Shown piece after piece: positions 17,085 to 34,091 of a stretch of DNA of 35,612 bases. Made by a program: the position numbers and the translations under genes. The notes beneath the pieces are model-generated. The model was given only the letters and a program-made list of their open reading frames with translations. It was not told the origin of the DNA and searched no databases. This DNA comes from Candidatus Methylomirabilis tolerans (GTDB lineage Bacteria > Methylomirabilota > Methylomirabilia > Methylomirabilales > Methylomirabilaceae), in assembly GCA_019912425.1 (NCBI GenBank), contig JAIOIU010000065.1:1-35612 (forward strand). Direction: 5' to 3'. Numbering within the stretch: the first letter of the stretch is position 1; each line of letters starts with the position of its first letter.

Positions 17085-18149
17085 TTATTTGTTGCCAGAA
17101 TTATGCTCCAGAAAAACTTCGATAGCTGAAACCACTTCTTCTGCACGCCTATCCAGCGAGTAGGCTGGAACCGCTCGGCGGTGCGCCGCTAAAGCGATAC
17201 GATTACGCTCATCGATACGTGGTAAAAAATAGAGGATCTCTTCCGCTAGTTCCTCTGGCGTATCAAACATAGGCACCTCGGCGCTTTCGTCATACAGGAT
17301 TCGCGCATACCCGGTACGGTGGTGGATGAAAAAGCAATGTGCTGCCGCAAGTTCGTAGGTCCGTGTTGTATCTTCGTCGCCGGGTTGTCGTGTCCCGTTA
17401 ATGACAACCTCACGGGTCACGGGGGCTAAGCAAATACGACCGCCGCGCAGCCACTCAATATAAGCGCGTCCCTGGAGTTCGCCCGCAAATACCCAGTCAG
17501 AGGGAAAATCCTCCCGGTGTGCCATCCAACCATTACCACCGATTCCAACTGAAATGCCACGACCGGCAAGCAACTTCCCCAGGGCTTTCATAAGCCCCCC
17601 ATATTCAGGTCGCCAGGTGGCTACCAAGACAACATCGAAACGCGGCGCAGTTGGCAGATCGCGTACTAAGTGAATAGCAGGGTCATAACCTTGCGGCACA
17701 AAGACACAGGAATTGTTGTAACCATAAACACTTCGCCACAATTCCGGATGAAAACTTTTGGTTGAAATCACGAGGTCATAAGCACCTATAGCCTTTTTGT
17801 GAACGGCCCCGTGGGCATGCGGTGAAAAATCTGGATAGACATTAACCACATGGCAGCCCATCTTCTGAAGTTGGCACACGAAACTAGCTTCAATCGGAAA
17901 ACCTTTGTACATCATTACTACGTCCGGTTTTAAGGCTTCGGCACGAATTAGAATCTGTCGGTAGAGCTCTTGACGGTAAGCCAAATGCAAAATCCGATTT
18001 ACTGCCCGAAGCCAACGAGCTCGCGGCCTAGGCGCAAATGCCTCCTCGGCGACCTCATCAAGCTCCACTTTAGAGTAGCGCACCAACGCCTCCCTGAGAC
18101 TGCGAGCACAGGAGCCGAACCAGGATTCGCCAACGTAAAGGATTTTCAA
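17085..18149 (-). CDS. CgeB-type glycosyltransferase
   Basis: 354 residues, GT-B-like. The N-terminus (MKILYVGESWFGSCARSLREAL) and middle (KPDVVMMYKGF ... YDLVISTKSF ... VFVPQGYDP) match the CgeB/Glyco_trans_1_2 family. The C-terminal part keeps EDTTRTYELAAAHCFFIHHRT and VPMFDTPEELAEEI, where these enzymes bind the donor. It starts 10 nt after the polymerase-like gene and is followed by a GT4 gene, so it is part of the same operon. A second, distinct CgeB-type enzyme lies at 21911-23017 next to the other polymerase-like gene. The substrate is unknown. Confidence 0.82.
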   Translation of the reverse strand: MKILYVGESWFGSCARSLREALVRYSKVELDEVAEEAFAPRPRARWLRAVNRILHLAYRQELYRQILIRAEALKPDVVMMYKGFPIEASFVCQLQKMGCHVVNVYPDFSPHAHGAVHKKAIGAYDLVISTKSFHPELWRSVYGYNNSCVFVPQGYDPAIHLVRDLPTAPRFDVVLVATWRPEYGGLMKALGKLLAGRGISVGIGGNGWMAHREDFPSDWVFAGELQGRAYIEWLRGGRICLAPVTREVVINGTRQPGDEDTTRTYELAAAHCFFIHHRTGYARILYDESAEVPMFDTPEELAEEILYFLPRIDERNRIALAAHRRAVPAYSLDRRAEEVVSAIEVFLEHNSGNK

Positions 18150-18159
18150 AATATTGTAA

Positions 18160-19680
18160 CTATACTCTGACTCGGCGAGTACTTTTCTGAAAAAACGAAA
18201 TGAGCTTTCCCAACAAGATCACCATTAAAAGCAGCGAAATCGATCCAGCAAATTCATAAACAGGCCATCCCTCATCAAGTCGCAATGCCTTATATGCGGC
18301 CCCAGACAGTAAAAGAAGCTGGGCGAACGAACTACCAAAACGAATCACCACGGAAAGAGAAACAGCATATAGCGCCCCTAGCATCATAGAATAAATGAGC
18401 ACACCCCACAGACCAGCGCCCAGATACAAGGCCGAAAAAAACCCCGCAGCGGTCGCAGTATAATCACCCATTCCCCGGCCATAAACCAGATCACTGAAAT
18501 CACTCCCAGGGCGAAATTGTGGTTTCTCAACCCATAGAACACGGGGTATAAAGATCTGGTAAGCATGATCGGGGGAAAACTCCTTAACGTGGCCACGGTG
18601 CTCAACTATTGCGAACGACCATCCGTTCACCTCAAGCAAGTTTTTCCGCGAAAGTGAATTTTCAACGGCAGTCGCCCAAAGGTTATTATCCAATCGAAAT
18701 GCATCCACAGTTATATCAAATACCTGAACCGCAGAGCGACCTTGTCCTTCAATCCAATTAATATCGCGTTGTATACTCACAAATACTGTCATGAAGGCAA
18801 ATACAGCTGCCATCAGCAAACCAACAAAAGTGCGCGTCCACGCCCCTTTAGCTACAACAAAAACCCCAATGGCAACCGGTAACACTGAAAAAATAATGTT
18901 CTCTTTCATCCCCGTTCCGAGAGCACCATAAATTAGGGGAAAACTAAGAAGTAAAGGCAAGAGAACGCAGCGTCGCCAAGTTCGACCCTGAGAAGAACCC
19001 AAAGAGATAAGCAAAATACTGAGCATAGCCATAATAAAAAAGACATATAGAATTGAGCCCAGGAATGCAAGGTCGAATTCAAGTATTCGAATGGAAAAAA
19101 CAACGCTTACACCAATCGCGTAGCCAATTATAAGAATGGAACGATCATATCGCCAGCTTTTAATGATTACGATCGAATGCTCATGTCCGCGCAATGCCAG
19201 CCACGTGCCCACCAATATTAATGCACCAGCAACGAAAGTAAATTCTCCATAAGCAATAAACAGAAGCGGTTCGTCAGCATATATCGGCCATCTTTCAATT
19301 CGATTCCCGAAAAATAGAACATCCAGAAACGACGACACCCTGAAGCACGCTGATGTAAGCAAGAACAATGCTCCAAAAGACAAGAAACGGTAATTTCCCC
19401 AGTCGATCCTGCGCCAGAGCATGAAGAAACAAAGCGCCCCCCACAACGAGAGAAATAACAAAAAAATATCGAGCACAACTTCTTCTCTAAATACCAGGGC
19501 TAATACTGCACCCGCTGAATACAATAATCCGACTTGAAATATAGCAACGATGGCCCCCCCCTGCCTGCGAGAAAGATTATGTGATTTTGCGCTAGCTGCT
19601 ACATCTTCCCCGACTGGGCGCTTGTTGCCGCGAGTCAATCCCAAAGTTAGTTGAACTTCGCGAAGCGGTCTCCCGGTCAT
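18160..19680 (-). CDS. Multi-spanning membrane protein, polymerase-like (Wzy-type)
   Basis: About 506 residues with roughly ten or more hydrophobic segments and a large, more polar loop near residues 310-400. This is the architecture of O-antigen or exopolysaccharide polymerases and ligases. No short motif is diagnostic, so the call rests on topology and location among glycosyltransferases. It is homologous to the truncated gene at 21060-21914 (shared WGNYRFLSFGAL-like and GMKENIIF-like segments). The IS256 element ends at 19645, just before the coding sequence. The nearest ATG (19680) lies inside the element, just past the transposase stop, and gives a hybrid N-terminus; a TTG at 19644 is the alternative. 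The native start appears lost. Confidence 0.6.
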   Translation of the reverse strand: MTGRPLREVQLTLGLTRGNKRPVGEDVAASAKSHNLSRRQGGAIVAIFQVGLLYSAGAVLALVFREEVVLDIFLLFLSLWGALCFFMLWRRIDWGNYRFLSFGALFLLTSACFRVSSFLDVLFFGNRIERWPIYADEPLLFIAYGEFTFVAGALILVGTWLALRGHEHSIVIIKSWRYDRSILIIGYAIGVSVVFSIRILEFDLAFLGSILYVFFIMAMLSILLISLGSSQGRTWRRCVLLPLLLSFPLIYGALGTGMKENIIFSVLPVAIGVFVVAKGAWTRTFVGLLMAAVFAFMTVFVSIQRDINWIEGQGRSAVQVFDITVDAFRLDNNLWATAVENSLSRKNLLEVNGWSFAIVEHRGHVKEFSPDHAYQIFIPRVLWVEKPQFRPGSDFSDLVYGRGMGDYTATAAGFFSALYLGAGLWGVLIYSMMLGALYAVSLSVVIRFGSSFAQLLLLSGAAYKALRLDEGWPVYEFAGSISLLLMVILLGKLISFFQKSTRRVRV

Positions 19681-21048
19681 GAGGTTACGCCACGTGCATC
19701 TCAGCCATTCGCATCGCGCCACCGAGTTCCGCCTGCAGCGCCTGACGCAGCACAGGGAGTGCCCGGAAGCCCTTGATCCGCCGCAAGCGGGGCTCAAGAT
19801 CCAGGAGCGCCGCGGCCAGCCAGCGCTGCTTCTGATCGGAGGTGCGCCACCGATCGACCTTGTCGGTCCGCTGCCCCAGGAGCGCATTGAGCGATTCGAG
19901 ACAGTTGGTGGTCTTCAAGCTGATTCCGAGCGCCCCGAACACGCCGAGGCGGTGCAGGGTCAGCGTCTCCTCGAACCCCTCATCGAGGCTCTTGACGGCC
20001 GATTCATTGACCAGCCGCAGTTCCTGCCGGACCCGGAGGAGCGCAGCCTTCGCCTCGGGGTAGTGTGGCTGCTCATAGGCCGCTTGGAGCTTCCGGCGAA
20101 CGCTCGCCCGCTGACGCTTCGGCAGGTACGCGAGGACATTCTCCCGCTTATGCCATTGACAGCGCTGGACGGCGGCGGCGTCCCCGAAGACCGTCTGGAT
20201 GGCCTTGCGGAGCCCCTTCGCGCCATCGATGACGCAGAGCAGGCCCTGCTCGACTCGCAGTCCCCGCTCGACCAATTCCCGCAGGAAGGCGGCACAGACG
20301 GTCTCGTTCTCGGTCGCGGTCTGGACAAAGCCGAGGAGCACCTTCTCCCCCGTCAGGGTGATCCCCAGGGCAATCACCATACTGTCCTCGGCGAAGGTCT
20401 TCCCATCCAGGATCAGCGCCACGACGTCGTAGCGGTCCAGTCGCCGCTCTTGCAAGGCTTGGAGCTGCTTGGCGCTCGCGCGGATGAAGCGGCGGGAGAT
20501 CGACGAGGGGCTCAACCCGAAGGCCTCCGGGACGGCCTCCGCACACGCTTCGTAGTCCCGACAACTCAGGCCGACGAGCACCTTCCGGAACAGCCCCAGA
20601 TCAGCGGCCCGGGGTTGCTGAAACCGCTGATAGGTGGGCAGGGGGAGCTCCCGGTTGCGGGGCAGATCCCGGACCCGTTGGTAGGTGATGGGGAGCTTCT
20701 GATCCGCCAGGTAGATCGAGCCCCGTTGGTGTCCCCAGCGGACGGCCCCCGGCACACCCCCCGTCCGCTTGTGCTTGGGACCCGCCAGGCGCAGCACCTC
20801 GGCTTGGAGTTCCTCGGCGACGGCCTCCAGCCCCACCGGGATGAGGGCCTGGATGAGCGCGACCCTGGCGTCGAGGCGGTCGGCCTCGGGGACCGTGTCG
20901 AGTTCGCGGAGACCCACGTCTTTCATCTTGCCTTTGCCTTGGATGCGGAATACTCTCTTCATGAAGCGGCTCCTTTTCGTGTGAGGTGTTCGGTTGTCGC
21001 CAACAACGGCCTCACCTTACGGGAGTCGCTTCGCTTTTTCAACTAACT
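19645..21048 (-). mobile_element. Intact IS256-family insertion sequence
   Basis: Terminal inverted repeats AGTTAGTTGAA (19645-19655) and its complement (21038-21048) continue imperfectly inward (GCGAAGCG and CTCCCG are shared). They bracket one transposase gene. IS256-family insertions normally make 8-9 bp target duplications, but the flanks here (CAATCCCAA and ATGGCACAC) differ. The element separates two homologous membrane-protein genes, one cut at its 3' end and the other missing its native start. Confidence 0.85.
19685..20962 (-). CDS. IS256-family (mutator-type) transposase
   Basis: A complete 425-residue transposase. DDE residues are visible: Asp186 in ALILDGKTF, Asp246 in CVIDGAKGLRKAI, and Glu356 in TTNCLESLN. 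The IS256 C-x2-H pair is present (C268-x2-H271, in QRCQWHKREN). The ATG at 20962 lies about 75 bp inside the right-hand inverted repeat and the stop about 30 bp before the left-hand one, as usual for single-gene IS256 elements. No lesion is seen. It is unrelated in detail to the IS256-like remnant at 5983-6306. Confidence 0.9.
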   Translation of the reverse strand: MKRVFRIQGKGKMKDVGLRELDTVPEADRLDARVALIQALIPVGLEAVAEELQAEVLRLAGPKHKRTGGVPGAVRWGHQRGSIYLADQKLPITYQRVRDLPRNRELPLPTYQRFQQPRAADLGLFRKVLVGLSCRDYEACAEAVPEAFGLSPSSISRRFIRASAKQLQALQERRLDRYDVVALILDGKTFAEDSMVIALGITLTGEKVLLGFVQTATENETVCAAFLRELVERGLRVEQGLLCVIDGAKGLRKAIQTVFGDAAAVQRCQWHKRENVLAYLPKRQRASVRRKLQAAYEQPHYPEAKAALLRVRQELRLVNESAVKSLDEGFEETLTLHRLGVFGALGISLKTTNCLESLNALLGQRTDKVDRWRTSDQKQRWLAAALLDLEPRLRRIKGFRALPVLRQALQAELGGAMRMAEMHVA

Positions 21049-21059
21049 ATGGCACACCA

Positions 21060-21914
21060 TCAGCGGATTGGCCGTGCGAAGGACACGTATGCCTGGAGAT
21101 ACGCGGTGAACAGAATTGCCGCGGTCAGGATTGCCAGCTTGGCACCGAGCTTCTTGGAGGCCAGCCAAAGCAGGATGCCAGCGGGTAACAGTGGGATGAT
21201 GATATTTTGTTTCATGCTGCTGCCTATCGCCATAAGGCTAAGCGGCAACCCCAGTCCAGCGGCCCATAGAATCCGGGACTTATTGCCCGGCCTGGTATTC
21301 GCGATTACAAGGGTAGCGGCGACACCACTCAAATAAAATACGCCGATAACCTGATTTGCCGACCCGTATTCGAGGTTAAACCGCTGCTTGGTGATTTCCA
21401 GCGTCATGGCAAGAACGTATAACGCCCACACAATCCAATATGCTTTACCCTGTTGCTTCGACGCGGCCAAGAATGACGTTCGCACCGCATGACGACCAAT
21501 GGACCAGTGCCATGAGAATACGACCAGGATAAGACTCACCTGAGTAAGCGCTTCGCCCCTTATGATGTCCCACCACGCTTCACTGGAGGAAACAGAGGTC
21601 GGCCACTCGTCGAAGCGACTGCCATAGCTTAAGATGTCGACGATGCCTATCAGGCGGTAAAACAGGCCGGCGAGCAGCGCCACCGCGCCAAAACTTTCGA
21701 AGCGAGCCTCACCCCACTGACCGCGGCTCCACAGATAATACAGCGCGGCGGCAGCCGCAAGATGGACTACGATCAACCAGAGGTCTCCCTCGAAATTCGT
21801 GCGACTCACGAAGGCCAGCGCCACACCGAAGGCGTAGATCAGCAGGGGGAAGACCACCGGCAGGTTGGACCAGTTTCGTTTCGTCTCGACCGCGGGGCGA
21901 AATAAATTATTCAT
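21060..21914 (-). pseudogene. Polymerase-like membrane protein gene, 3'-truncated at IS256
   Basis: The 284-residue product has about eight hydrophobic segments and aligns with the N-terminal half of the protein encoded at 18160-19680 (compare WGEARFESFGAVALLAG with WGNYRFLSFGALFLLTS, and GSSMKQNIIIPLLPAGI with GTGMKENIIFSVLPVAI). It ends at a TGA 11 bp before the right end of the IS256 element; the expected C-terminal half is not found beyond the element. The start is set by ATGA overlap with the stop of the upstream CgeB-type gene. Probably non-functional as a polymerase. Confidence 0.7.
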
Positions 21915-23017
21915 GGGCAGCAATTCACATGCTGATAATTGAGAGCCCCTTGGCCAAGGATGATACGCAAAGCTTCCCGTAATCGCTCACTGTTGCTGTA
22001 CCCGGACCGCAGGCAGCGCTCGTAGCCCCGCTGCGCGATCCTGATTCGCGCCTGGTTGTCGCGCAGATAATGCCTGCATTTCTCAAGAAGCTCCTCGCGT
22101 GAAGCAAAGAACTCCGCTTCCTCCCCCTCCTCGAATAGTTCGAGATGCTCGTCAGTCCTCTCCGCGAGCATAAAACCACCGCAGGCAGGGATTTCCACGC
22201 TACGAGTGGTTTGCTGATCACGGTTGATCTTTCGCAGGAACGCCAGATTAATCTTGAATGTAGCGCATGCTTTGGCGAAGTCGTCACCGTACAGGGGCGT
22301 GTTTTCTATGGCGAGATTTGGATGCTGCCACGGCATCTTCCCCCAATTGCTACCCCAGCCACGCACCCGAATACCTTGGGTAGCGAGATAGTACATTAGG
22401 TCCGCCCGTTCGCGCTCGTAAGTTCCGATAAAGCCAACATCACCGCCAAGTCTGATCCGGTCCTCGGACGAGACCGGTAACGGCCGGAAGGTGTCGGGGT
22501 CGAAGCCATTACCGACAAATACCACGTTGGGGCAGCCACGGTTGCCAAGTTCGTGGACATTGTAAGACTTGGTCGTCAAAAAGTAGTCGTAAAGCGGCAG
22601 CGCCTTCAGGAACTGCTGCGATTGGTTATGGCGACCATTCATGTCGTCAGGCGAGAACCCAATGATTCTCGCGACCGGACAGTGCTTGCGGACTCCCACC
22701 AACGTTTGGGGACCGATTGTGAGCGCCTTCTCGAGCCATACGATATCCCAATGTCCTTGTTTCGCTGCAGCGAGCAGTCGGGCATTATCGTTAGCAACGT
22801 CAGGACGCGACACCGGCACACCATAACGAAATAGTCGGCTACAAATCCTGCGTCTCATGTTCCTAAAACCTAAGCAGCAACCTGATGTACTGTCTACAAC
22901 ATGAATCTCACAACCCAGTGATGTGAGTGCCCTGATCCGGTGACGACTCGTATTATGCCCTCCGTATTCGCTGACTGGGCTTAATGCCAGAATGCGTGAT
23001 CCCTTCAGAGAGACCAT
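21911..23017 (-). CDS. CgeB-type glycosyltransferase
   Basis: About 368 residues. The N-terminus (ILALSPVSEYGGHNTSRHRI), the middle (NVVFVGNGFDPDTF, VGFIGTYERERADLM) and the C-terminus (TTRSVEIPACGGFMLAERTDEHLELF) match CgeB/Glyco_trans_1_2 glycosyltransferases. In that last segment the Glu before the Pro-Ala-Cys-Gly-Gly stretch is usually the donor-site acid. I choose ATG 23017 because GAGAAG lies 5 nt upstream; 23032 would add five residues. Its stop overlaps the start of the truncated membrane-protein gene. It follows the GT52-like gene after ~100 bp, suggesting it acts in the same repeat unit. Confidence 0.82.
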   Translation of the reverse strand: MVSLKGSRILALSPVSEYGGHNTSRHRIRALTSLGCEIHVVDSTSGCCLGFRNMRRRICSRLFRYGVPVSRPDVANDNARLLAAAKQGHWDIVWLEKALTIGPQTLVGVRKHCPVARIIGFSPDDMNGRHNQSQQFLKALPLYDYFLTTKSYNVHELGNRGCPNVVFVGNGFDPDTFRPLPVSSEDRIRLGGDVGFIGTYERERADLMYYLATQGIRVRGWGSNWGKMPWQHPNLAIENTPLYGDDFAKACATFKINLAFLRKINRDQQTTRSVEIPACGGFMLAERTDEHLELFEEGEEAEFFASREELLEKCRHYLRDNQARIRIAQRGYERCLRSGYSNSERLREALRIILGQGALNYQHVNCCP

Positions 23018-23120: not shown

Positions 23121-24047
23121 TCATATGAGCGATAAAATCTTACAACCCATTAGTGTAGCCACTTCGTTATATTCTTTTTGTAACTGCGATGTATTACCAT
23201 ATAAATCAACGACAACTTTCTGAATTCTCTGGCTCCTAACATTCAGCAAAACAGAACTATTGCAAGCATATAGTTCGATGGATTTGAAATTATTGAGCAA
23301 CTGCATTAAATATTCCTCGGCGATAAGATCCGTAGAGGTGTAATTTATCCAAGGCTCAGTTCTCTTTTCCATGGGGTGAGGAAGGTAGATATCCGGATTT
23401 ATGGTTTTTACTGCAGAAAAATATTTCGGTGAAAGATTGAAACCAAGGAATACCCTTATACTCTTGTTGACACCTTCTTCTGGCACCATATTGTAGTGGC
23501 CATTAAATAAATCCATGTTATGCAACCTTGTCGCCTCAACGATATTCGCCATACCCGGATAGATCGTGAAATGCTTGATGATACGTCGCTTAATCCAATC
23601 CTGGTCTTTATGTCTGCGCAGACAAAAGTAAGCAGCGTGCTGCTTCATTTGGAGTGTGGGCTTAACATGATAAATACTCGAAGGAATAATATTCACGGAA
23701 CCGTCATCGAATGTATATAGCGCTGCCGACGGATGTCGATGAATGATGCATTGTGCAAAAACGGTATCAATAGATGCGAGATAGAGTGAGACAATTCTAT
23801 ACTTTTGCCATTTCCTTAGCACTCCACTCACCTTCTTATAATTTCCAACTATTCGCGAGTTCAGGATTAAATAGTCACCTTCGATTGCATTCTCGGCAAG
23901 TTGTGCGAAATAATTTCGCGTCACTTGTTGATCGTGCGGATTAATGTTCATCACGAGATAATCCGTTATCCCTTGCTCCTGAATAACTCTACGTGCTATG
24001 AATGATTGCAAGGGAGTCACGCAAATGAATGCACTCACTTCCTTCAC
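23121..24047 (-). CDS. GT52-like (sialyltransferase-type) glycosyltransferase, candidate pseudaminyltransferase
   Basis: 308 residues from a GTG start overlapping the pseI stop (GTGA) with GGGAGG four nt upstream. The features match the GT52 pattern of the Lst alpha-2,3-sialyltransferases: ICVTPLQSFIA near the start, FDDG (113-116) where the family has its Asp-Asp-Gly, KHFTIYPG, VFLGFNLS and YLPHPMEKR (PHP at 223-225). GT52 enzymes use CMP-nonulosonates, and this gene directly follows pseI, so it probably transfers the CMP-pseudaminic acid made by its neighbours to a glycan acceptor. That specificity is inferred. It is more AT-rich than its neighbours, suggesting separate acquisition. Confidence 0.75.
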   Translation of the reverse strand: MKEVSAFICVTPLQSFIARRVIQEQGITDYLVMNINPHDQQVTRNYFAQLAENAIEGDYLILNSRIVGNYKKVSGVLRKWQKYRIVSLYLASIDTVFAQCIIHRHPSAALYTFDDGSVNIIPSSIYHVKPTLQMKQHAAYFCLRRHKDQDWIKRRIIKHFTIYPGMANIVEATRLHNMDLFNGHYNMVPEEGVNKSIRVFLGFNLSPKYFSAVKTINPDIYLPHPMEKRTEPWINYTSTDLIAEEYLMQLLNNFKSIELYACNSSVLLNVRSQRIQKVVVDLYGNTSQLQKEYNEVATLMGCKILSLI

Positions 24048-25084
24048 AAAACCTCCCAAGCCATCGGCGTTCCCGCCTTCACATCACGACTGGCGTTGCG
24101 TCCTAATATCAGTTCAAGGTACTTCGGCGGTAATCCCAACCCCGGTCTAATTGCACGCACATTTTCCCGTGTCAGCACATCCCCGGCCTTGAGGTCTTGC
24201 ACGACATAAAGCGAGCGACGGAACTGGAGCGACTTTTTATCGGTTTCCGTTGGGCTATAGGTCACTTGGCCTAGCGCCTGCCAGGCGCGTTCGGTCTCGA
24301 CCACCAGTTGTGCCATTTCGGCAGGCTCCATGGAGAACGTACTATCTACACCGTTGTCGGCGCGGGAAAGCGTAAAATGCTTTTCGATAATCTTTGCGCC
24401 GTGTGCGACGGCTGCCACCGCTACCCCCACGCCCATGGTATGGTCTGACAGACCGACTTCGCAACCGAAGAGCTTGCGCATGTGGGGAATAGTCAGAATG
24501 TTGGTATTCTCAGGGGAGGCAGGATAGGTGCTGGTGCACTTCAGCAGCACTAGCTCACGGCAGCCGAACTCGCGGGCAGCGCGCACGGTCTCGTCCAGCT
24601 CCGCCACCGTGGCCATGCCTGTCGAAATAATCATCGGTTTGCCGGTCGCCGCCACTTTGCGAATGAGCGGGAGGTCAGTGTTTTCGAAGGAGGCGATCTT
24701 ATAGCACGGTACGGCGAGAGTCTCCAGGAAATCGACTGCGGTTTCGTCAAACGGGGTGCTGAAGGCCACCATGCCCAACTTGTGAGCGCGGTCTAAAATA
24801 GGCTTATGCCACTCCCAAGGCGTATAGGCCTCTTGATAAAGCTTGTAAAGCGACTTGCCTTGCCAAGGACTGTTGGGATCGGAAATGAAGAATTCACCTT
24901 CCTCGAGGTCTAAGGTCATCGTATCAGCAGTATAGGTCTGAATTTTTAAGGCATGTGCCCCTGACCTGGCGGCGGCGTCCACTATCGCAAGTGCCCGGTC
25001 GAGGGATTGGTTATGGTTGCCAGACATCTCGGCAATGATGAAAGGCGGGGCATTAGGGCCTATGGTTCGACGGGCAATTTCCAT
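24044..25084 (-). CDS. pseI: Pseudaminic acid synthase PseI (NeuB family)
   Basis: 346 residues. The NeuB TIM-barrel domain (about 1-280) opens with PPFIIAEMSGNHNQSLDRA and has KIQTYTADTM, STPFDETAVDFLE, CYKIASFE, IISTGMA, LLKCTSTYP and GLSDHTMG, plus the EKHFTLSRADNGVDSTFSM segment. These are PseI-type rather than NeuB- or LegI-type signatures. A C-terminal SAF domain (about 285-346) closes over the active site. The enzyme condenses 2,4-diacetamido-2,4,6-trideoxy-L-altrose with phosphoenolpyruvate to make pseudaminic acid. It begins 4 nt after the PseG fusion and overlaps the GT52-like gene, so translation is probably coupled. Confidence 0.93.
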   Translation of the reverse strand: MEIARRTIGPNAPPFIIAEMSGNHNQSLDRALAIVDAAARSGAHALKIQTYTADTMTLDLEEGEFFISDPNSPWQGKSLYKLYQEAYTPWEWHKPILDRAHKLGMVAFSTPFDETAVDFLETLAVPCYKIASFENTDLPLIRKVAATGKPMIISTGMATVAELDETVRAAREFGCRELVLLKCTSTYPASPENTNILTIPHMRKLFGCEVGLSDHTMGVGVAVAAVAHGAKIIEKHFTLSRADNGVDSTFSMEPAEMAQLVVETERAWQALGQVTYSPTETDKKSLQFRRSLYVVQDLKAGDVLTRENVRAIRPGLGLPPKYLELILGRNASRDVKAGTPMAWEVL

Positions 25085-25088
25085 GGTC

Positions 25089-27332
25089 TTATCGATGATG
25101 AGGATTTCTTATCAATTTAATTTCGGAATCACCAATGCTATCGTCTGCCCTTTCAATCTTGAGCAGATAGCGGCTACCCTTGTGGTTGAACCATGCAGGG
25201 TAGTGATCGTTATCAACAACACGCAGCAGGTTAAACTGTGTTGCCAATGATTGGGCCACGTTTAACTCGCTATCCTTTGGAAAGCGGCGACGATAGAATG
25301 TCGGATTCCCTTTCTGCGGAACCCTTTTGGCCGCCGACGTTGGAAATTGATCCACAAATTCGCGGCAAAGATGGAACGTAGCCTTCGTCACAGCGGCTCG
25401 CAATTCATCGATCAACTCCGTACCAGTCAACTCGAATCTTACCTGCATGTAAATATCCCCACTATCGACCAAATCGGCCGCCTCCAACAACGTAACAGGG
25501 ATCCGATCCTTGCCCTCCAGCACAAGCCAAGTCATCGGCGACATACCACGTCCGCAAGGCAGGTCGCTGGCGTGTACCACCAAGTTGTGCTGATAACGTA
25601 CGCGGGTGGCACCATCTACAATCTGGCTATAGCTCAAATAAAAGCAGATGTCGCCATCGGGCAATTCTGCGGCAGCATGTACCCATGTGACCTGATGCCC
25701 TGCAGTCAGCCAGTCCAGCAAGAGCCTCGGCACATCGGCATTAATCCAACTACCGGCATCAGAGCACACGGCGATAGATAAGCTCCCCCCCCCAGTCCCC
25801 TGAGTCGCAGCTTTTGATTCAAAGCCAAGGCCATCAAATACATGCCGGGAGGCCCGGTTACCCGCTTTGACTTTGCCGAAGATGATGGCGCCCAATTCGG
25901 TTGAACGCAGTTTCAGCATTGCCGTTTGCAGCAGCGGCTTTGCGAGCCCAGCGCCCCGACAACGGGCATCCAATGAGTAGCTGATCTCCCATGCGTCCTC
26001 GGATCGCTCAAAGCGGACCTGGCCGATTGGGAAGCCGTCAGGGGTTTCCACCACATAGAGACGGCAGTGATCCACATCGCGCAGACGCTTGCGGAACCAT
26101 GTTCTGTGCGTGGCGGCATTGATGACTTCAGTCGAGAACGCGTTTTGTCGGACAAGCGGGTCATTCGCCCATTGCAGAATCAAGGCTTCGTCATCCAACC
26201 GTGCCGGTCGAGCCTGCAAGGGTGTGTTCGGTGAAAGCGTCAGCAGCGAACACACCCGGCTTGTACCCTGACCGTCTACCAGTTGCCGGCAGTTCTGTGA
26301 CCATGCTTCCTGTAGGCCCTCCTTCAGAAGCTCTCCTAACACATGGCCAAGGTTTGACTCATTCACCTCGCCCACGTGCCCGAGCCAGCGGATCATCCCC
26401 TGCCGAGCGAGTTCAGCCGCAATAGGCCGTTGATTGTCCGCAAGCGTGATCACCAGTGACGGCAGTCCCAAGCAGCAGCGCTCCCATGTGGTGGCACCGC
26501 CAGCACCGATGGCGAAATCAGCTCGGACCATCAGCGGCGCAAGGGTAGGTAAGTCGCTGTGGAGATGGATGTTGGCGTGCCCAGCCGTTTGCTGGCGAAT
26601 ACTTTTCGCGTAGGGGCTGCTCACATTCACCACCACATCCAGATCGATATCGGAGCGACCCAGCGCCAGAAACGCTTCGATTGCCATGCCGGTTAAGTTA
26701 CCCACATCAGCTCCGCCAAAGTAGACTAAGATGCGCCGGATCGGTCCGTCGCGAGGAGGAATCCGATCGCGCAATTCGGCGTACTCAGGCTGCAGGAGCG
26801 CATAGTGCGGCCCCAGCATCAGTCCGCAATGCGCGGGCACCTTGCCGGCATAGCGCGTGTCAGCATTGCTGAAGAGATTCTGGTCAAGCAACAGGTCGCA
26901 GTCGTGGGAGCGATCGGCCAGGTCGTCAATAACCATCAGACGCTTAGCGTGCCGACGTAATGCCGCTTCCCAACGGGCATCAAGGGCGTAGTGATCGACG
27001 ATGAGCCAGTCGGTCGTACCGAATACCTGACCGATTGCCTGGCCGGTTTCCTCCGCATCTTGTTTCCATGAGGCACCGAGCCAGTGAGCATGATCCGGCA
27101 GGTCAACGTCATCGGTGGTCTCGTCGGTATGAGGCTCGGAGATTACAGGCATCCGGGTCACAATACATCCCCGCGCGGCAGCTTCATCACATAAATGGCC
27201 GGGATGCTCTCGACTCACAAACAACACCTCCGCGCCTTTGCGCTTTAACGCCTCTGCCAGTGTGAGACACCGCATGACATGGCCGGTGCCGATTTCGACC
27301 GAGGCGTCTGCCCGCACCGCGACGCGCATCAT
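25089..27332 (-). CDS. pseG: PseG-PseH-formyltransferase-like three-domain fusion
   Basis: 747 residues, about twice a usual PseG. Residues 1-365 are PseG, the UDP-sugar hydrolase that releases 2,4-diacetamido-2,4,6-trideoxy-L-altrose, with IGTGHVMRC (14-22), the VDHYALD loop (112-118) and GAGGATTWERCCLGLP (276-291). Residues about 371-520 are a GNAT domain of the PseH type, with ARCRGAGLA (456-464) and HVFDGLGFE. Residues about 521-735 resemble methionyl-tRNA formyltransferase: HNLVVHASDLPCGRG (582-596) and EAADLVDSGDIY (617-628). His587 and Asp623 match the catalytic His and Asp, but the usual Asn two before the His is Val585 with Asn583 nearby, so a 10-formyl-THF activity needs testing. 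An ATGATG start overlaps the methylase stop. Confidence 0.88.
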   Translation of the reverse strand: MMRVAVRADASVEIGTGHVMRCLTLAEALKRKGAEVLFVSREHPGHLCDEAAARGCIVTRMPVISEPHTDETTDDVDLPDHAHWLGASWKQDAEETGQAIGQVFGTTDWLIVDHYALDARWEAALRRHAKRLMVIDDLADRSHDCDLLLDQNLFSNADTRYAGKVPAHCGLMLGPHYALLQPEYAELRDRIPPRDGPIRRILVYFGGADVGNLTGMAIEAFLALGRSDIDLDVVVNVSSPYAKSIRQQTAGHANIHLHSDLPTLAPLMVRADFAIGAGGATTWERCCLGLPSLVITLADNQRPIAAELARQGMIRWLGHVGEVNESNLGHVLGELLKEGLQEAWSQNCRQLVDGQGTSRVCSLLTLSPNTPLQARPARLDDEALILQWANDPLVRQNAFSTEVINAATHRTWFRKRLRDVDHCRLYVVETPDGFPIGQVRFERSEDAWEISYSLDARCRGAGLAKPLLQTAMLKLRSTELGAIIFGKVKAGNRASRHVFDGLGFESKAATQGTGGGSLSIAVCSDAGSWINADVPRLLLDWLTAGHQVTWVHAAAELPDGDICFYLSYSQIVDGATRVRYQHNLVVHASDLPCGRGMSPMTWLVLEGKDRIPVTLLEAADLVDSGDIYMQVRFELTGTELIDELRAAVTKATFHLCREFVDQFPTSAAKRVPQKGNPTFYRRRFPKDSELNVAQSLATQFNLLRVVDNDHYPAWFNHKGSRYLLKIERADDSIGDSEIKLIRNPHHR

Positions 27333-27955
27333 TGTGCAGCCTTTTCCAGAAGGAACCAGTTGCCATCGTCTTGCGGGAAATTTGGATCACGATGGTAGGC
27401 GAATCCGTAATCAACCAGACGCAGATCCACGAAACGGTCGAGCATTTCACCCGCAAAATCGCGCTTGAATAAGCGGTCACGATTGCCGCGGTAGGGCACT
27501 TCAACCGGGGTTGGATTGTAGTACTCGACTATGCAAATGTAACGGCGAGCCGATTGGCGGAGTCGGTCGTATACTTCAGACAGGCGCTCGGGATTGATGT
27601 GGATCAGTACACCCTTGATCAGTACCAGGTCGTATTGCGCCTGGGGTTGGAAGTCGAGCATCGACTGTGCGTGAATAACGATACCGCCCAGCTTTTCCAG
27701 CGCCCCCACTGCCTTGGCATTGATTTCTACGGCAAAAAGCGCAATACCGGGCACGAGCAAGCGCAGAGCTTCAAGATTGAGACCGATGTTGGCGCCGAAC
27801 TCGATGGCGGAGCGTACTGATTGAGTACGTTGGAGGATCTTGCCGAATAGCGCAAGATTGCCAGCAATTATCGTTCTATCCCGGTTCCGGTCGATGTACT
27901 GATCGCCGAACTCCCCGGCCCAGAATCTTTCCTGCTCCGTCTGATATTTCGACAT
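27329..27955 (-). CDS. Pseudaminic acid biosynthesis-associated methylase
   Basis: 208 residues. EQERFWAGEFGDQYIDRN (7-24) and the SAM-binding motif I AIEFGANIGLN (50-60) are the signature of the small methyltransferase family repeatedly found in pseudaminic acid loci (TIGR03587-type). A GVLIHINPE segment replaces the usual motif IV region and the C-terminus is DDGNWFLLEK. Its substrate is not established in general; it probably methylates pseudaminic acid, a precursor, or the finished glycan. It lies 12 nt after pseF and its stop overlaps the start of the PseG fusion, inside the pathway genes. Confidence 0.88.
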   Translation of the reverse strand: MSKYQTEQERFWAGEFGDQYIDRNRDRTIIAGNLALFGKILQRTQSVRSAIEFGANIGLNLEALRLLVPGIALFAVEINAKAVGALEKLGGIVIHAQSMLDFQPQAQYDLVLIKGVLIHINPERLSEVYDRLRQSARRYICIVEYYNPTPVEVPYRGNRDRLFKRDFAGEMLDRFVDLRLVDYGFAYHRDPNFPQDDGNWFLLEKAAQ

Positions 27956-27967
27956 CCTCGTTTTCCC

Positions 27968-28705
27968 TTATTCTCCCAGCCTCTTTTGGCGCACGTGGGC
28001 ATTGATCTCGACCCACTCCGGATGGTGTTCGAGCAACGCCAGGATATCCCGCGTGTCGAACCCCGGCTTTACCGGATACAGTGCTTCGAGGATTCTCCGA
28101 ACCAACTCGAAATCTTCTGAGGTATCCACTGTCCATCGGTGGTAGCTGTGGTTTTCCGCATGAACCACATGGCCAATACGATAGCGGGCCGGCCGCGTGT
28201 AGATGAAGGGGGTAACATGTTCTCGCTCGAATTGCGCCTTGGCTTTCCGATGCGCCTCGTCCAACACACTGAACGGGAATACTTCGACCGCCATGCCATA
28301 GGGATAGCTCTGGGTCAGGGCGTTAGATACGTAATCGTACTCGGCCCGGTGGTCGAAATAAAACCGGATAGCCTCGTCGATCACGGCGGGATCGATGAGC
28401 GGGCAGTCTGAGGTCACGCGGACGACCACGCTGGCATGGTGGGATACGGCTGCCTGATAGTATCGCGCCAACACGTCGTACTCGGAGCCCCGCGTGACCG
28501 GAATGCCCAGACGCGCGCACAGGTTTACGATAGGGAGATCGGTATCGTTGGTCGTTGTCGCAATAACGATGCCGTCGGCCCACTTCACCCGCCGCAAGCG
28601 TTCGACCTGATATTCCAGCAGCGACTTGCCCATTACCTCCTTCAGCACCTTACCCGGCAGCCGGGTAGAGGTCATTCTGGCCTGGACGGTGATGACCGTG
28701 TTCAT
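27968..28705 (-). CDS. pseF: Pseudaminic acid cytidylyltransferase (PseF/SpsF type)
   Basis: 245 residues. The nucleotidyltransferase P-loop region VQARMTSTRLPGKVL (7-21) and the following RVTSDCPLIDPAVID place it in the SpsF/CMP-KDO-type cytidylyltransferase superfamily. In this position it should activate pseudaminic acid with CTP to give CMP-pseudaminic acid, the glycosyl donor; SpsF-like proteins in spore-coat loci do related work, so the substrate follows from context. The ATGA overlap with the pseC stop implies coupling. Confidence 0.88.
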   Translation of the reverse strand: MNTVITVQARMTSTRLPGKVLKEVMGKSLLEYQVERLRRVKWADGIVIATTTNDTDLPIVNLCARLGIPVTRGSEYDVLARYYQAAVSHHASVVVRVTSDCPLIDPAVIDEAIRFYFDHRAEYDYVSNALTQSYPYGMAVEVFPFSVLDEAHRKAKAQFEREHVTPFIYTRPARYRIGHVVHAENHSYHRWTVDTSEDFELVRRILEALYPVKPGFDTRDILALLEHHPEWVEINAHVRQKRLGE

Positions 28706-29862
28706 GCGGCGAATAGCTCTCGCAACGTATCTACCACGCGATCCTGCTGCGTGTCGGTCAAGGTCGGGTAAAGCGGCAGGGTGATGGTCTCTTCACCGTG
28801 AGCCTCGGCTTCCGGGAACTGCCCGGGTTTGAAACCCAGATCGCGGTAATAGGGCTGCAGGTGCACGGGCATGTAGTGCACGTTTACGCCAATGCCTGCA
28901 GCGCGCAGGTTTTCAAAGATCTCTCGACGGGTCTTTTTGGGGACTTCAGGCTTTATGCGCACCGCGTAAAGGTGGAAGGCGGAATAGTTTTCCGGCCTTA
29001 CTGTCGGTAGGCGCAATGGCAACCCTTGGAGCCTCTCGTCGTAACGAGAAGCCAGGCCGTTGCGGCGCTTCACCCATTCTTCCAGGCGCGCCAGTTGACT
29101 TACACCTAGCGCTGCCTGGATATCGGTCATGCGGTAATTGAAGCCCAACGCCTGCTGCTCATAGGCCCAAGGTCCGGCGGGCGGCCGGGTCATGCGTTCA
29201 GGTTCACGGGTGATTCCGTGGGTCCGCAGCATCCCCATGCGCCAGGCGAGCTCTTCATCGTTGGTAAGCGCCATGCCGCCCTCGCCGGTGGTGATGATCT
29301 TGACCGGATGGAAACTGAATACGGTAATATGCGACCAGCGGCAACTGCCTACCGGCTCGCCGCGGCGTGAGGCACCGATAGCGTGAGAGGCATCCTCGAT
29401 AACCTTGAAGCCGAATTCCTTCGCCAGTTCCCAAATGGCTTCCTGTTCGGTGGGTTGGCCGGCGAAGTGTACGGGCACGACTACCTTTGGCAGGCGTCCG
29501 CCTTGTTTGGCCTGAAACAGCTTCTCCTGCAGTCGGGGTAGACTCAGGTTCCACGTGGCTGGATCAATGTCGACAAAATCCACCCCGGCGCCGCAATAAC
29601 GCCCGCAGTTAGCCGATGCCACGAAGGTGTTCGGTACCGTCCAGAGCCGGTCGCCTGGTCCCAGGTCCAGCGCCAGGCAGGCAATGTGCAGAGCCGAGGT
29701 GGCGGAATTCATCGCAACGGCGTACGTTGCCCCCACCTTTGCGGCGACCGCCTGCTCGAAACGCGGTACCATGGGGCCTTGGGTGAGAAAATCCGAGCGC
29801 AGCACATCGACGACTGCATCGATGTCGGCTTGGCTGATCTCTTGGCGGCCGTAGGGGATCAT
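28702..29862 (-). CDS. pseC: UDP-4-keto-sugar aminotransferase PseC
   Basis: 386 residues, a DegT/DnrJ/EryC1-type PLP aminotransferase. The N-terminus IPYGRQEISQADIDAV is typical. Lys188 in SFHPVKIITTGEGG is the Schiff-base lysine, and Asp157 in VIEDASHAIG contacts the PLP ring nitrogen. PseC transaminates UDP-2-acetamido-2,6-dideoxy-beta-L-arabino-hexos-4-ulose, made by PseB, to the 4-amino L-altro sugar using glutamate. It starts 3 nt after the pseB stop and its own stop overlaps pseF. Confidence 0.93.
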   Translation of the reverse strand: MIPYGRQEISQADIDAVVDVLRSDFLTQGPMVPRFEQAVAAKVGATYAVAMNSATSALHIACLALDLGPGDRLWTVPNTFVASANCGRYCGAGVDFVDIDPATWNLSLPRLQEKLFQAKQGGRLPKVVVPVHFAGQPTEQEAIWELAKEFGFKVIEDASHAIGASRRGEPVGSCRWSHITVFSFHPVKIITTGEGGMALTNDEELAWRMGMLRTHGITREPERMTRPPAGPWAYEQQALGFNYRMTDIQAALGVSQLARLEEWVKRRNGLASRYDERLQGLPLRLPTVRPENYSAFHLYAVRIKPEVPKKTRREIFENLRAAGIGVNVHYMPVHLQPYYRDLGFKPGQFPEAEAHGEETITLPLYPTLTDTQQDRVVDTLRELFAA

Positions 29863-29865
29863 TTG

Positions 29866-30864
29866 TCAAATGTACCCGATCTTATCCCGGTAGCGGTCAA
29901 TCCAGTCCCGCAGGGTCTCAACGCTCATCCACTCCGGGTTGTTGTCGGAACGATAACTGAAATCCCGATCAACCTTCACGCCTCCATTGCTACGAGCCGG
30001 ATCCTGGCTCCAGTTGTGTATCGCGGGCAGAATTTTGAAGTGATCGGGATACGCATAGGTGTATGGCGCATCCTCAATGCCGATCATCTGCTCGTGGACC
30101 TTCTCACCCGGGCGAATGCCAACGATCTCAAAGCGCGCATCCGGGGCAACGGCATATGCGATATCGGTCAGCTTCATCGAAGGGATTTTCTTAACGTAGA
30201 TCTCGCCGCCCACCATGTCCTCAAAGGCATGCCATACCAGCTCCACACCTTCTTCGAGGGTAATCATAAAGCGGGTCATTCGTTCGTCGGTGATCGGCAA
30301 TACACCCGTATGGGCGATGCTCATGAAAAACGGGATGGCCGAACCCCGCGATCCCATGACATTGCCGTATCGCACGACGGCGAATCGGGTCGTGTGGGCA
30401 CCGGAATAGGAGTTACCGGCGATAAACAGCTTGTCGGAGGCGAGCTTCGTCGCCCCATACAGATTCACCGGGTTGCTGGCCTTGTCAGTAGACAGTGCGA
30501 CGACCCGCTTCACGCCTCGGTCGATACAGGCATCGATGAGGTTCATCGCCCCCATGACGTTGGTCTTCACGCACTCGAACGGATTGTATTCGGCCGTTGG
30601 CACGATCTTGGTGGCAGCGGCGTGTACGACATAGTCAATGCCATCGAGGGCGCGGTTCAGCCGCTCCTTATCGCGCACATCGCCGATGAAGAAGCGCACC
30701 CGGGGGTCCTCGCCATAGATCTTTGCCATCTCCCACTGTTTCATCTCGTCGCGCGAAAAAATGACCAGGCGCTGCGGGTTGTATTTTGCAAGGGTCATGG
30801 GCACAAAGGTGTGGCCGAAGGAACCCGTGCCGCCGGTAATGAGGATGGAGGAGTTTGTTAACAT
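29866..30864 (-). CDS. pseB: UDP-GlcNAc 4,6-dehydratase (inverting) PseB
   Basis: 332 residues. The NADP-binding GGTGSFG is at 11-17. The active-site set Asp127-Lys128 (STDKASNP) and Tyr136-x3-Lys140 (LYGATK) is that of PseB/FlaA1, which removes the 4,6-water of UDP-GlcNAc with C5 inversion. RYGNVMGSRGSAIPFF, RMTRFMITLEEGVELV and PGEKVHE are also FlaA1-like. It is the first committed step of the pathway. It starts 93 bp after the ABC transporter stop with no terminator visible in the gap, so one transcript is likely. Confidence 0.93.
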   Translation of the reverse strand: MLTNSSILITGGTGSFGHTFVPMTLAKYNPQRLVIFSRDEMKQWEMAKIYGEDPRVRFFIGDVRDKERLNRALDGIDYVVHAAATKIVPTAEYNPFECVKTNVMGAMNLIDACIDRGVKRVVALSTDKASNPVNLYGATKLASDKLFIAGNSYSGAHTTRFAVVRYGNVMGSRGSAIPFFMSIAHTGVLPITDERMTRFMITLEEGVELVWHAFEDMVGGEIYVKKIPSMKLTDIAYAVAPDARFEIVGIRPGEKVHEQMIGIEDAPYTYAYPDHFKILPAIHNWSQDPARSNGGVKVDRDFSYRSDNNPEWMSVETLRDWIDRYRDKIGYI

Positions 30865-32745: not shown

Positions 32746-33325
32746 TTACGGCTGACGTCTGGCGTTCTGGTACCAGGCGATGGTGCGACGGAGGCCCTCC
32801 CGGAACTCAGTTTTGGCTTTGAAGCCAAACTCTTGTTCGGCTCGGCTGGTGTCCGCACATCGGCGGGACTGGCCATCGGGCCGGGTGGGATCACAGACGA
32901 TCTTTCCCTGAAACCCAGAGAGGGTGGCGATCATCTCAGCCAATTCGGTTATCGTGATCTCAAACCAAATGCCGAGGTTCCACACAACTTGTACCCCGCC
33001 GAACGTTGTTGCCGGTGTATTCGGGCATCTCGAAGCTGACCTTGACATGGGATTGCGCGCCCAGGTGGTAGATCTCGTCCGGCCGGATGTTGTAAATCAG
33101 GTGGGTAAGCTGTTCCATGCTGGAGAGGTCCCCGTAGTGAAGGAACAGCCGGGCATTCGGGTCATGGAGATCCTGATAGAGATGGTCGATGCGGCCGGTA
33201 TTGAACGTGCTGGCCCGGCGGATGAGGCCGTGGACCTCATAGCCCTTGGCGAGCAACAACTCGGCGAGGTACGAGCCGTCCTGGCCGGTGATGCCGGTGA
33301 TCAAGGCGCGGTTGTTATGCGTCAT
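32746..33325 (-). pseudogene. GDP-mannose 4,6-dehydratase / GDP-fucose synthase deletion fusion
   Basis: The 5' part (33325 to about 33018) encodes the first ~105 residues of Gmd: [58 protein letters not shown]. At about 32995-33018, within MPEYTGNN, it changes to the C-terminal ~80 residues of GDP-L-fucose synthase ([21 protein letters not shown] ... DPTRPDG ... [14 protein letters not shown]) in another frame. The Gmd catalytic tetrad and the first two-thirds of Fcl are missing, so a deletion of roughly 1.7 kb is implied by normal gene lengths. No active enzyme is expected. The Gmd start codon lies inside a GCGT-word array. Confidence 0.85.
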
Positions 33326-33490
33326 TGCGTCATTGCGTCGTCGCGTTGATAGCGTCTATGGCGTTGATTGCGTTGGTTGCGTCTGTAGCGTTCGTTGCGT
33401 GCGGCGTGGGTTGCGTCAGCGCGTCTATAGCGTTGATTGCGTGCGGCGTGGGTTGCGTTGGTTGCGTCGTCGAGCCTATTGCGTGGGGTT
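33319..33490. repeat. GCGT-word array 1 (degenerate 7-9 bp tandem repeat)
   Basis: Nearly continuous short words begin GCGT followed by 3-5 variable bases (TGATT, CTATA, TGGTT, CGTC, CAGC, GCG, GGGTT). The 20-mer GCGTGCGGCGTGGGTTGCGT occurs at 33397-33416 and 33439-33458. Word lengths vary (9, 8, 7), so no reading frame survives and it is probably non-coding. It contains the start codon of the gmd remnant and overlaps the 3' end of the DUF5615 gene. Confidence 0.8.
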
Positions 33491-33864
33491 TTCTTCTGCA
33501 CCGATGGGTAGCCGCCGTACTCGCAAACGCGACTCCTCGATCACTACCACAGCCCCACGTCTTAGTGATTCGGCCACTTCTTTCAAGTTGGAGAGCAGGA
33601 AAGGTACTTGGGCTTCCGGTCTTCGGGGACCATCCGCCGGAAGAGGATCACGGATGGTTTGTTCTCTTGGCGGAGGGCCAGCAGAGTTCCGAAATCGGTA
33701 TCGGCCGAGACGATCACGCGATCCTCACGGGCCGCACGATCAAAAATGACTTCGTCGTCCGATTCTTGCAATCCATAGTCACGTACGTGAAGCGCGTCAT
33801 GCCCCGCCTTTCGGAGACCTTCAGTTACGACTGGCGACAGGGCATTGTCTACCAGAAACCTCAT
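33476..33864 (-). pseudogene. DUF5615 PIN-like toxin gene with a frameshift
   Basis: The frame from 33864 encodes [35 protein letters not shown] and VILFRR, the PIN-like core of DUF5615 toxins, then stops early at 33583 after 93 residues. A second minus-strand frame picks up the family C-terminus directly: [36 protein letters not shown], ending with the TAG at 33476. A one-base deletion near 33624-33635 explains the switch. Its start overlaps the DUF433 stop (ATGA). The native 3' end lies inside the edge of array 1. Confidence 0.8.
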
Positions 33865-34091
33865 GCCGGGATTGTCAGCGGCAGTTCACGCTCGCGGACG
33901 GCCTCTGCGGCGTACTGCAAGGCTTCTCGGATGTCCTCCTGATGGAGATCGGGATAGGTCTTCAGTATCTCTTCTGTGGTCATGCCGTCCGCCACCATCG
34001 CCACCACTGTGGCGACCGGAATGCGTAACCCACGAATGCATGGGACCCCACCCATCCGTTGAGGATTCACGGTAATTCGCCTAAATTTCAT
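33861..34091 (-). CDS. DUF433-family antitoxin
   Basis: 76 residues, full length for the family. It shows the DUF433 pattern: [22 protein letters not shown] (Arg-Ile then GGxPxIxGTRIPV-like), a helix [12 protein letters not shown], and [18 protein letters not shown] at the end. Such proteins are helix-turn-helix antitoxins, typically encoded just before DUF5615 PIN-like toxins, and they autoregulate the pair. Its stop overlaps the toxin start, as expected. The toxin partner is frameshifted here, so this antitoxin may now act alone. Confidence 0.88.

What the first reader, a model, noticed from the sequence alone, without database searches (positions are those of the whole stretch)
25089..27332. 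PseG, PseH and a formyltransferase-like domain in one 747-residue protein
Three activities are fused: UDP-sugar hydrolysis (PseG, 1-365), N-acetylation (GNAT/PseH-like, 371-520) and a methionyl-tRNA-formyltransferase-like domain (521-735). The usual order of action is acetylation first, then hydrolysis. A formyl transferase could compete with PseH for the same 4-amino group and produce N-formyl pseudaminic acid. The formyl domain keeps His587 and Asp623 but has Val585 where the classical catalytic Asn sits, with Asn583 two residues earlier, so either the chemistry has shifted or the domain is a relaxed variant. Having both acyl donors in one protein could let a cell switch between N-acetyl and N-formyl forms. 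Stand-alone formyltransferases in pseudaminic acid pathways are, to my knowledge, known; this three-domain form I do not recognise.
Basis: partly seen in the sequence, partly recalled or inferred. Interest (0 to 1): 0.78.

Follow-up and report, generated by a model that had tools for sequence, protein, structure and literature searches.

The report
Three-domain pseudaminic acid enzyme with formyltransferase
One gene of a probable methane-oxidising bacterium joins three enzymes for making the bacterial surface sugar pseudaminic acid, and its last domain most likely puts a formyl group where most bacteria put an acetyl group; the same fusion turns up in unrelated bacteria and archaea.

Summary
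In detail: 25089-27332 (minus strand) is one intact 747-aa frame with PseG (1-366), GNAT (372-508) and formyltransferase (FT, 515-732) domains, in a tight pseB-pseC-cytidylyltransferase-methylase-fusion-pseI operon. Val585 is not a sign of decay. It marks a widespread FT subfamily of nonulosonate clusters (80 of 81 sequences; 27 of 28 not pre-selected by the search pattern), with His587 and Asp623 invariant. The AlphaFold2 model matches 1zgh, ArnA and other formyltransferases.

The fusion is not unique: at least 11 other single-gene PseG-GNAT-FT proteins exist in bacteria and archaea; I found no published description. FT clusters usually lack a GNAT, and three fused relatives have a wrecked GNAT beside an intact FT.

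Best clue: the one congener with this operon has a stand-alone PseG followed by an orthologue of PseJ, a formyltransferase named for this pathway, and no GNAT. Similarity to the window gene stops abruptly near codon 323, so the gene is a mosaic. Most likely the FT domain 4-N-formylates the PseC product before PseG cleaves it, giving 7-N-formyl-pseudaminic acid, a known sugar. The GNAT's role and any acetyl/formyl switch are unproven.

The parts
25089..27332 (-). Fused gene PseG-GNAT-FT, 747 aa, ATG start; overlaps the upstream methylase gene by 4 bases and ends 4 bases before pseI
26235..27332 (-). PseG domain, residues 1-366 (UDP-sugar hydrolase); His18 in the GTGH motif aligns with His17 of C. 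jejuni PseG
   Evidence: TIGR03590 296.7 bits; alignment to 3hbm; fold match 3hbn TM 0.82 normalised by target
25809..26219 (-). GNAT (PseH-like) domain, residues 372-508; acetyl-CoA loop RCRGAG intact at 457-462
   Evidence: Pfam Acetyltransf_3 51.9 bits; alignment; residue numbers
25137..25790 (-). Formyltransferase domain, residues 515-732, of the N-L-V-V-H-x-S-D-L-P subfamily ('FTb' in this report)
   Evidence: Pfam PF00551; profile match to 1zgh and ArnA; AF2 pLDDT 93.8; fold search
25572..25586 (-). Active-site strand: Asn583, Val585 (where classical enzymes have Asn), His587
   Evidence: His 81/81, Val 80/81, Asn583 77/81 in relatives
25464..25466 (-). Asp623, catalytic Asp equivalent
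   Evidence: Asp 82/82 in relatives
26360..26370 (-). Apparent recombination breakpoint in the PseG part, about codon 323: DNA similarity to the congener's stand-alone pseG stops here
24044..25084 (-). PseI, pseudaminic acid synthase
   Evidence: TIGR03586 504 bits over cut-off 340
27329..27955 (-). Pseudaminic-acid-biosynthesis-associated methylase
   Evidence: TIGR03587 291 bits over cut-off 112
27968..28705 (-). Cytidylyltransferase (PseF role), CTP_transf_3 family; below the PseF equivalog cut-off
   Evidence: 62% identical to the gene in the same place of the Synechococcus pse cluster
28702..29862 (-). PseC aminotransferase
   Evidence: TIGR03588 554 bits over cut-off 423
29866..30864 (-). 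PseB dehydratase/epimerase
   Evidence: TIGR03589 529 bits over cut-off 408
23121..24059 (-). Glycosyltransferase family 52 protein overlapping pseI; candidate transferase for the finished sugar
   Evidence: Pfam PF07922 69.8 bits; role inferred from position

Best explanation
The gene encodes a fused enzyme of the CMP-pseudaminic acid pathway. PseB and PseC make UDP-4-amino-4,6-dideoxy-N-acetyl-L-altrosamine. The C-terminal domain transfers a formyl group from N10-formyl-tetrahydrofolate to the free 4-amino group, and the N-terminal PseG domain then removes UDP, so PseI and the cytidylyltransferase yield CMP-5-N-acetyl-7-N-formyl-pseudaminic acid. The formyltransferase does the job that PseH does elsewhere. 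The GNAT domain is a retained PseH-like module, probably from an older PseG-GNAT fusion; its fold and acetyl-CoA loop are intact, so it may still acetylate some of the sugar, but relatives dispense with it. Shown by sequence: three domains, conserved His/Asp, the operon, equivalence of position with PseJ in a congener, and the mosaic structure. Inferred: substrate, donor, product and order of reactions.
For: Formyltransferase fold and profile matches. His587 and Asp623 invariant in 81-82 relatives. Complete pse operon. In the same-genus genome G006 the syntenic operon (PseB 89%, PseC 83%, PseI 75% identical) has a stand-alone PseG followed by an orthologue of PseJ (phmmer E=1e-63 to 6ci2) and no detectable GNAT in the stretch read. 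Of 39 pse clusters drawn from Pseudomonadota, GNAT is in 26 of 35 without this FT and in 0 of 4 with it (Fisher p=0.009). Of 32 FT clusters (with PseG and PseI) lacking a PseG-GNAT fusion, 28 have no GNAT nearby. Of 24 FT-bearing genomes, 22 lack a PseH over the curated cut-off. GNAT is eroded in the fused relatives L033, L037 and L040 while the FT motif stays intact. PseG-FT fusions with no GNAT exist. The product, a 5-acetamido-7-formamido nonulosonic acid, is known from Pseudoalteromonas distincta (cited in PMC3210612 and PMC7281560).
Against: No enzyme of this FT subfamily was found to have been assayed. The catalytic Asn of classical formyltransferases is absent, so donor chemistry is assumed. 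The window's GNAT is not eroded, which fits two working acyltransferases at least as well as a relic. The counts treat related loci as independent, 'no GNAT' refers only to DNA within 8-9 kb, and the 80 FT loci were found with motifs, which favours intact sites.
Confidence: 0.7

Rival explanations
1. Both acyltransferase domains are active on the same 4-amino group, and the cell makes a mixture of N-acetyl and N-formyl pseudaminic acid set by acetyl-CoA and formyl-folate levels.
For: Both domains have intact motifs in the window protein; the intact three-domain form occurs in several phyla, so it has been kept by selection or spread by transfer.
Against: FT and GNAT are mostly alternatives in other clusters; GNAT is eroded in three fused relatives.
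Confidence: 0.2
2. The GNAT acetylates the 4-amino group (normal PseH role) and the FT formylates the other nitrogen, after a deacetylase removes the 2-N-acetyl group, giving a 5-N-formyl, 7-N-acetyl sugar.
For: Some fused relatives (L038, L039, L044) have a PIG-L/LmbE deacetylase gene near the fusion and no second formyltransferase.
Against: No such deacetylase was seen in the window; the genome's only PIG-L protein is on another contig and 28% identical to the cluster type. Across clusters the deacetylase pairs with a different formyltransferase subfamily (all 24 clusters with that subfamily have LmbE). The fused relatives L030, L031, L033, L035 and L042 lack it in the DNA held.
Confidence: 0.08
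3. The FT domain has lost catalysis (no Asn) and serves only as a structural or sugar-binding domain, with the GNAT doing the acylation.
For: Val replaces the classical catalytic Asn.
Against: Val is the rule in a large subfamily with invariant His, Asp, Ser and Gly-rich loop, including stand-alone enzymes in clusters that have no GNAT. Solved 1zgh also has Val at the aligned place.
Confidence: 0.05

Closest known systems
PseJ, formyltransferase named for the pseudaminic acid pathway (PDB 6ci2, 6ci4, 6ci5, 6edk)
   Same: Formyltransferase family; its orthologue occupies the same operon position in the same-genus genome G006
   Different: Different subfamily (single-sequence E about 0.03); PseJ keeps Asn at the active-site strand (NLHISYLP), and the congener's copy is a stand-alone gene
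1zgh, Clostridium thermocellum 'methionyl-tRNA formyltransferase' (solved structure; the name is the depositors', function unproven)
   Same: Best profile and fold match of the FT domain; also Val instead of Asn; same HxxDLPxGRGxSP loop
   Different: Belongs by motif to the sister type ('FTa', HMTDLPxGRGGSP) that sits beside an LmbE deacetylase in other genomes; not fused
ArnA N-terminal domain (UDP-4-amino-4-deoxy-L-arabinose formyltransferase)
   Same: 4-N-formyltransferase acting on a UDP-sugar, part of a fused enzyme; profile match
   Different: Keeps the catalytic Asn (from memory); different partner domain and pathway; far below its model cut-off
PseG-GNAT (PseG-PseH-like) two-domain fusions
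   Same: Same first two domains; about a quarter of PseG genes in a Pseudomonadota sample by frame length and HMM
   Different: No formyltransferase domain
PseG-GNAT-FT fusions in L030, L031, L035, L038, L039, L042, L044, L046 and L173
   Same: Same three domains in the same order, usually next to PseI
   Different: None in architecture; 49-60% identity in the FT domain for the nearest ones

Membership tests
PseG (TIGR03590) | Score over curated cut-off | tested here: met
   296.7 bits against 153.55
PseG (TIGR03590) | Catalytic His of the GxGH motif (His17 in C. jejuni, from memory) | tested here: met
   His18 aligned with it in the 3hbm alignment
PseH (TIGR03585) | Score over curated cut-off | tested here: not met
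   27.4 bits against 93.1
GNAT acetyltransferases | Pfam GNAT domain over cut-off and acetyl-CoA loop R/Q-x-x-G-x-G/A | tested here: met
   51.9 bits against 25.4; RCRGAG at 457-462
Formyltransferase fold family (PF00551) | Pfam score over cut-off and fold match to solved formyltransferases | tested here: met
   27.5 against 26.1; 1zgh E 7e-15, ArnA, HypX
Formyltransferase fold family (PF00551) | Complete catalytic Asn-His-Asp triad | tested here: not met
   His587 and Asp623 present; Asn replaced by Val585, as in the whole subfamily
Methionyl-tRNA formyltransferase (TIGR00460) | Score over curated cut-off | tested here: not met
   43.4 bits against 201.5
ArnA (NF005998) | Score over curated cut-off | tested here: not met
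   55.8 bits against 777
PseJ | Orthology to the solved PseJ | tested here: not met
   E about 0.03 by single sequence, while the congener's protein gives 1e-63
UDP-sugar 4-N-formyltransferase (function) | Formylation of the PseC product with N10-formyl-THF | not testable with these tools
   needs an enzyme assay

The most novel reading that the evidence does not exclude
Nonulosonate clusters use two formyltransferase subfamilies that both lack the textbook catalytic Asn: one (the type here) serving the 4-amino/7-N position in place of PseH, the other paired with a PIG-L deacetylase and serving the 5-N position. Together with GNAT they would form a readable two-position N-acyl code, and the fusion here would pass the sugar from formyltransferase to hydrolase inside one protein while keeping a second acyl donor in reserve.
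Probability: 0.3. Interest if true: 0.58.

Novelty: new variant of a known kind. Interest (0 to 1): 0.42.

Why it matters
N-formyl pseudaminic acid is known chemically, and PseJ is the only formyltransferase named for this pathway that the searches here turned up among solved structures. The subfamily described here is spread over many phyla of bacteria and archaea and one phage contig, is annotated at best as 'methionyl-tRNA formyltransferase', and changes which N-acyl form should be predicted for genomes now assumed to make the di-N-acetyl sugar. The missing Asn makes it a simple test of how much of the formyltransferase triad is needed. The congener comparison shows how such cassettes are swapped by recombination inside pseG.

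Tried and rejected
Viral contig scans with the single sequence found nothing, and with a widened pattern one phage contig. Plasmid and phage protein searches gave mainly ArnA-like and other distant formyltransferases plus one informative Synechococcus plasmid cluster. Idea that the fusion is a lineage trait of the genus: rejected, only this genome and G006 have a PseG over the cut-off, and the same-species genome G060 has none. Idea that the fusion arose once and spread unchanged: the tree needs at least 6 changes for the three-domain state, with splits and losses mixed in, so gain and loss are not resolved. Idea that the FT acts with the genome's own PIG-L deacetylase: unlikely, it is distant. 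The rows used to widen the motif search (second row of A2, third row of A3) hold a consensus written from memory; they only set search patterns and enter no count. No paper on a PseG-GNAT-FT fusion was found in the open-access library.

Full report
What is there. The minus-strand frame 27332-25089 is open for 747 codons. It lies in an operon of overlapping or nearly touching genes: PseB, PseC, a cytidylyltransferase, the pseudaminic-acid-associated methylase, the fusion, PseI and a GT52-family glycosyltransferase. Upstream is an ABC exporter and downstream are glycosyltransferases, so the cluster looks like a surface-polysaccharide locus. The genome carries a PmoA/AmoA-family protein, and its finished congener G006 is a single contig of 2,752,854 bp. 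From memory that is the size of Candidatus Methylomirabilis oxyfera (NC10 phylum), so the window probably comes from a nitrite-dependent methane oxidiser; this identification was not verified.

Domains. PseG scores 297 bits on its equivalog model, the GNAT domain is over its Pfam cut-off but far below the PseH equivalog, and the last domain just passes the formyltransferase Pfam cut-off. AlphaFold2 on 32 sequences gives mean pLDDT 90.9 with a disordered linker at 509-514. The FT domain alone gives 93.8 and matches 1zgh, ArnA, HypX, FMT and sugar N-formyltransferases. The whole model matches C. jejuni PseG with TM 0.82 normalised by that target. A profile of the FT family finds 1zgh, ArnA and, more weakly, PseJ.

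The Val/Asn question. A genome scan with the motif region returned 80 loci. In the aligned domains His587 is present in 81 of 81, Asp623 in 82 of 82, Val585 in 80 of 81 (the other is Ile) and Asn583 in 77 of 81. One search pattern itself demanded part of this motif, so I checked the loci that do not fit that pattern: all 28 with a readable motif have Val (27) or Ile (1) at this place. Val is therefore a subfamily trait. A second formyltransferase type in many of the same clusters (motif HMTDLPxGRGGSP, as in 1zgh) has Val, Ile, Leu or Cys there. The congener's PseJ keeps Asn (NLHISYLP).

How common the fusion is. Single-gene PseG-GNAT-FT proteins occur in L030 (Betaproteobacteria), L031, L035 and L173 (archaea or a sample drawn from an archaeal phylum), L033 (Gemmatimonadetes), L037 and L042 (Burkholderiales/Burkholderiaceae), L038 (cyanobacterium), L039 and L044 (Desulfobulbaceae, Desulfococcaceae) and L046 (Proteobacteria). 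PseG-GNAT with the FT as the next gene occurs in L032, L034, L045, L049 and L095, and PseG-FT without a GNAT in L041, L043, L052, L054, L057 and L083. In 398 genomes of the phylum of L030, 51 have PseG over cut-off, and the only three-domain case is the genome that was the centre of the sample. In 393 genomes of the phylum of L031, 2 of 12 over cut-off are three-domain, one of them the centre. The architecture is uncommon but recurrent.

What the FT replaces. In the Pseudomonadota sample, 39 clusters have PseG, PseI and PseC in view. GNAT is found in 26 of 35 without this FT and in none of 4 with it (Fisher p=0.009). Among FT clusters with PseG and PseI but no PseG-GNAT fusion, 28 of 32 have no GNAT nearby. 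Of 24 FT-bearing genomes only 2 have a PseH over the curated cut-off anywhere. Three fused relatives (L033, L037, L040) have a GNAT segment that has lost the R-x-x-G-x-G/A loop, while their FT motifs are intact. The FT is thus the usual substitute for PseH, and the GNAT is the dispensable partner. These loci are related by descent to varying degrees, so the p-value overstates independence.

The congener. Only one other genome of the genus has a PseG over cut-off; the same-species genome has none. In G006 the operon is syntenic: PseB 89%, PseC 83%, PseG 76%, PseI 75% identical. Between PseG and PseI lies a 213-aa PseJ orthologue, E=1e-63 to the solved enzyme, and no GNAT was detected in the stretch read. 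DNA identity of the window gene to that pseG is 75-95% in 100-base steps up to about base 968 and then ceases; protein identity falls from 85% (residues 241-318) to 29% (319-366), below the 35-42% seen there with the far more distant fused proteins. The window gene is therefore a mosaic: a genus-type PseG front joined to a foreign PseG-end/GNAT/FT tail, or the reverse event in the congener. The cytidylyltransferase and methylase part of the operon also differs between the two. That a formyltransferase named for this pathway holds the same slot in the sister operon is the strongest argument for what the FT does.

Mechanism. Shown by sequence: domain content, conserved His and Asp, operon, slot equivalence with PseJ, mosaic structure. 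Inferred: formyl transfer from N10-formyl-THF to the 4-amino group of the PseC product, then UDP removal by the PseG domain, then PseI and the cytidylyltransferase, giving a 7-N-formyl, 5-N-acetyl pseudaminic acid. Such a sugar is known in Pseudoalteromonas distincta (reference cited in PMC3210612 and PMC7281560), and N-formylated legionaminic acid in Halorubrum with a candidate formyltransferase gene (PMC6137143). Asn583, two residues before Val585 on the same strand, may take the polar role of the missing Asn; this is a guess that needs coordinates and mutants.

Verdict. The chemistry is likely formylation rather than a relaxed site. The acetyl/formyl switch is possible but not favoured. The fusion is recurrent in public genomes though apparently undescribed: a new variant of a known kind, of moderate interest.

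Noticed in passing
L028, L043, L049, L073, L076, L082, L098, L104, L109 and other pse clusters: A second formyltransferase subfamily (HMTDLPxGRGGSP, like 1zgh) is always accompanied by an LmbE/PIG-L deacetylase in PseI clusters (24 of 24 with it; 12 of 74 without it have LmbE). This suggests N-acetyl removal followed by formylation at the other nitrogen.
   Followed up: partly
L029:4953-5585: A stand-alone relative of the formyltransferase domain (39% identity) sits among tail-type genes of an IMG/VR phage contig.
   Followed up: partly
L169:7164-12926 and 17855-18307: In the finished congener the pse operon with a PseJ orthologue lies about 5 kb from a FliW-like gene (read by eye), hinting at flagellin glycosylation there, unlike the polysaccharide setting in the window.
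   Followed up: no
window 23121-24059: A GT52-family glycosyltransferase (a family that includes LPS sialyltransferases, from memory) overlaps pseI and could be the pseudaminic acid transferase.
   Followed up: no
window 18160-21923: A transposase-like frame (19685-20962, by eye) lies between two similar multi-membrane proteins of polysaccharide-polymerase character (18160-19887 and 21060-21923); the second looks cut short.
   Followed up: no
window 8567-9736: Transposase with DUF4372 and DDE_Tnp_1 domains next to a GAF/HD-domain protein at 7336-8427.
   Followed up: no
L152:2962-6423: A 1154-residue frame joins cytidylyltransferase, PseG and GNAT segments, another fusion in the same pathway.
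   Followed up: no
L186-L191: In an archaeal-phylum sample several PseG-like proteins of about 560-590 aa carry an unidentified N-terminal part of some 230 residues or more and are followed by a PseI-like gene.
   Followed up: no
window 33246-33942: Low-complexity frames with repeated valine/glycine/cysteine-rich peptides on the plus strand.
   Followed up: no
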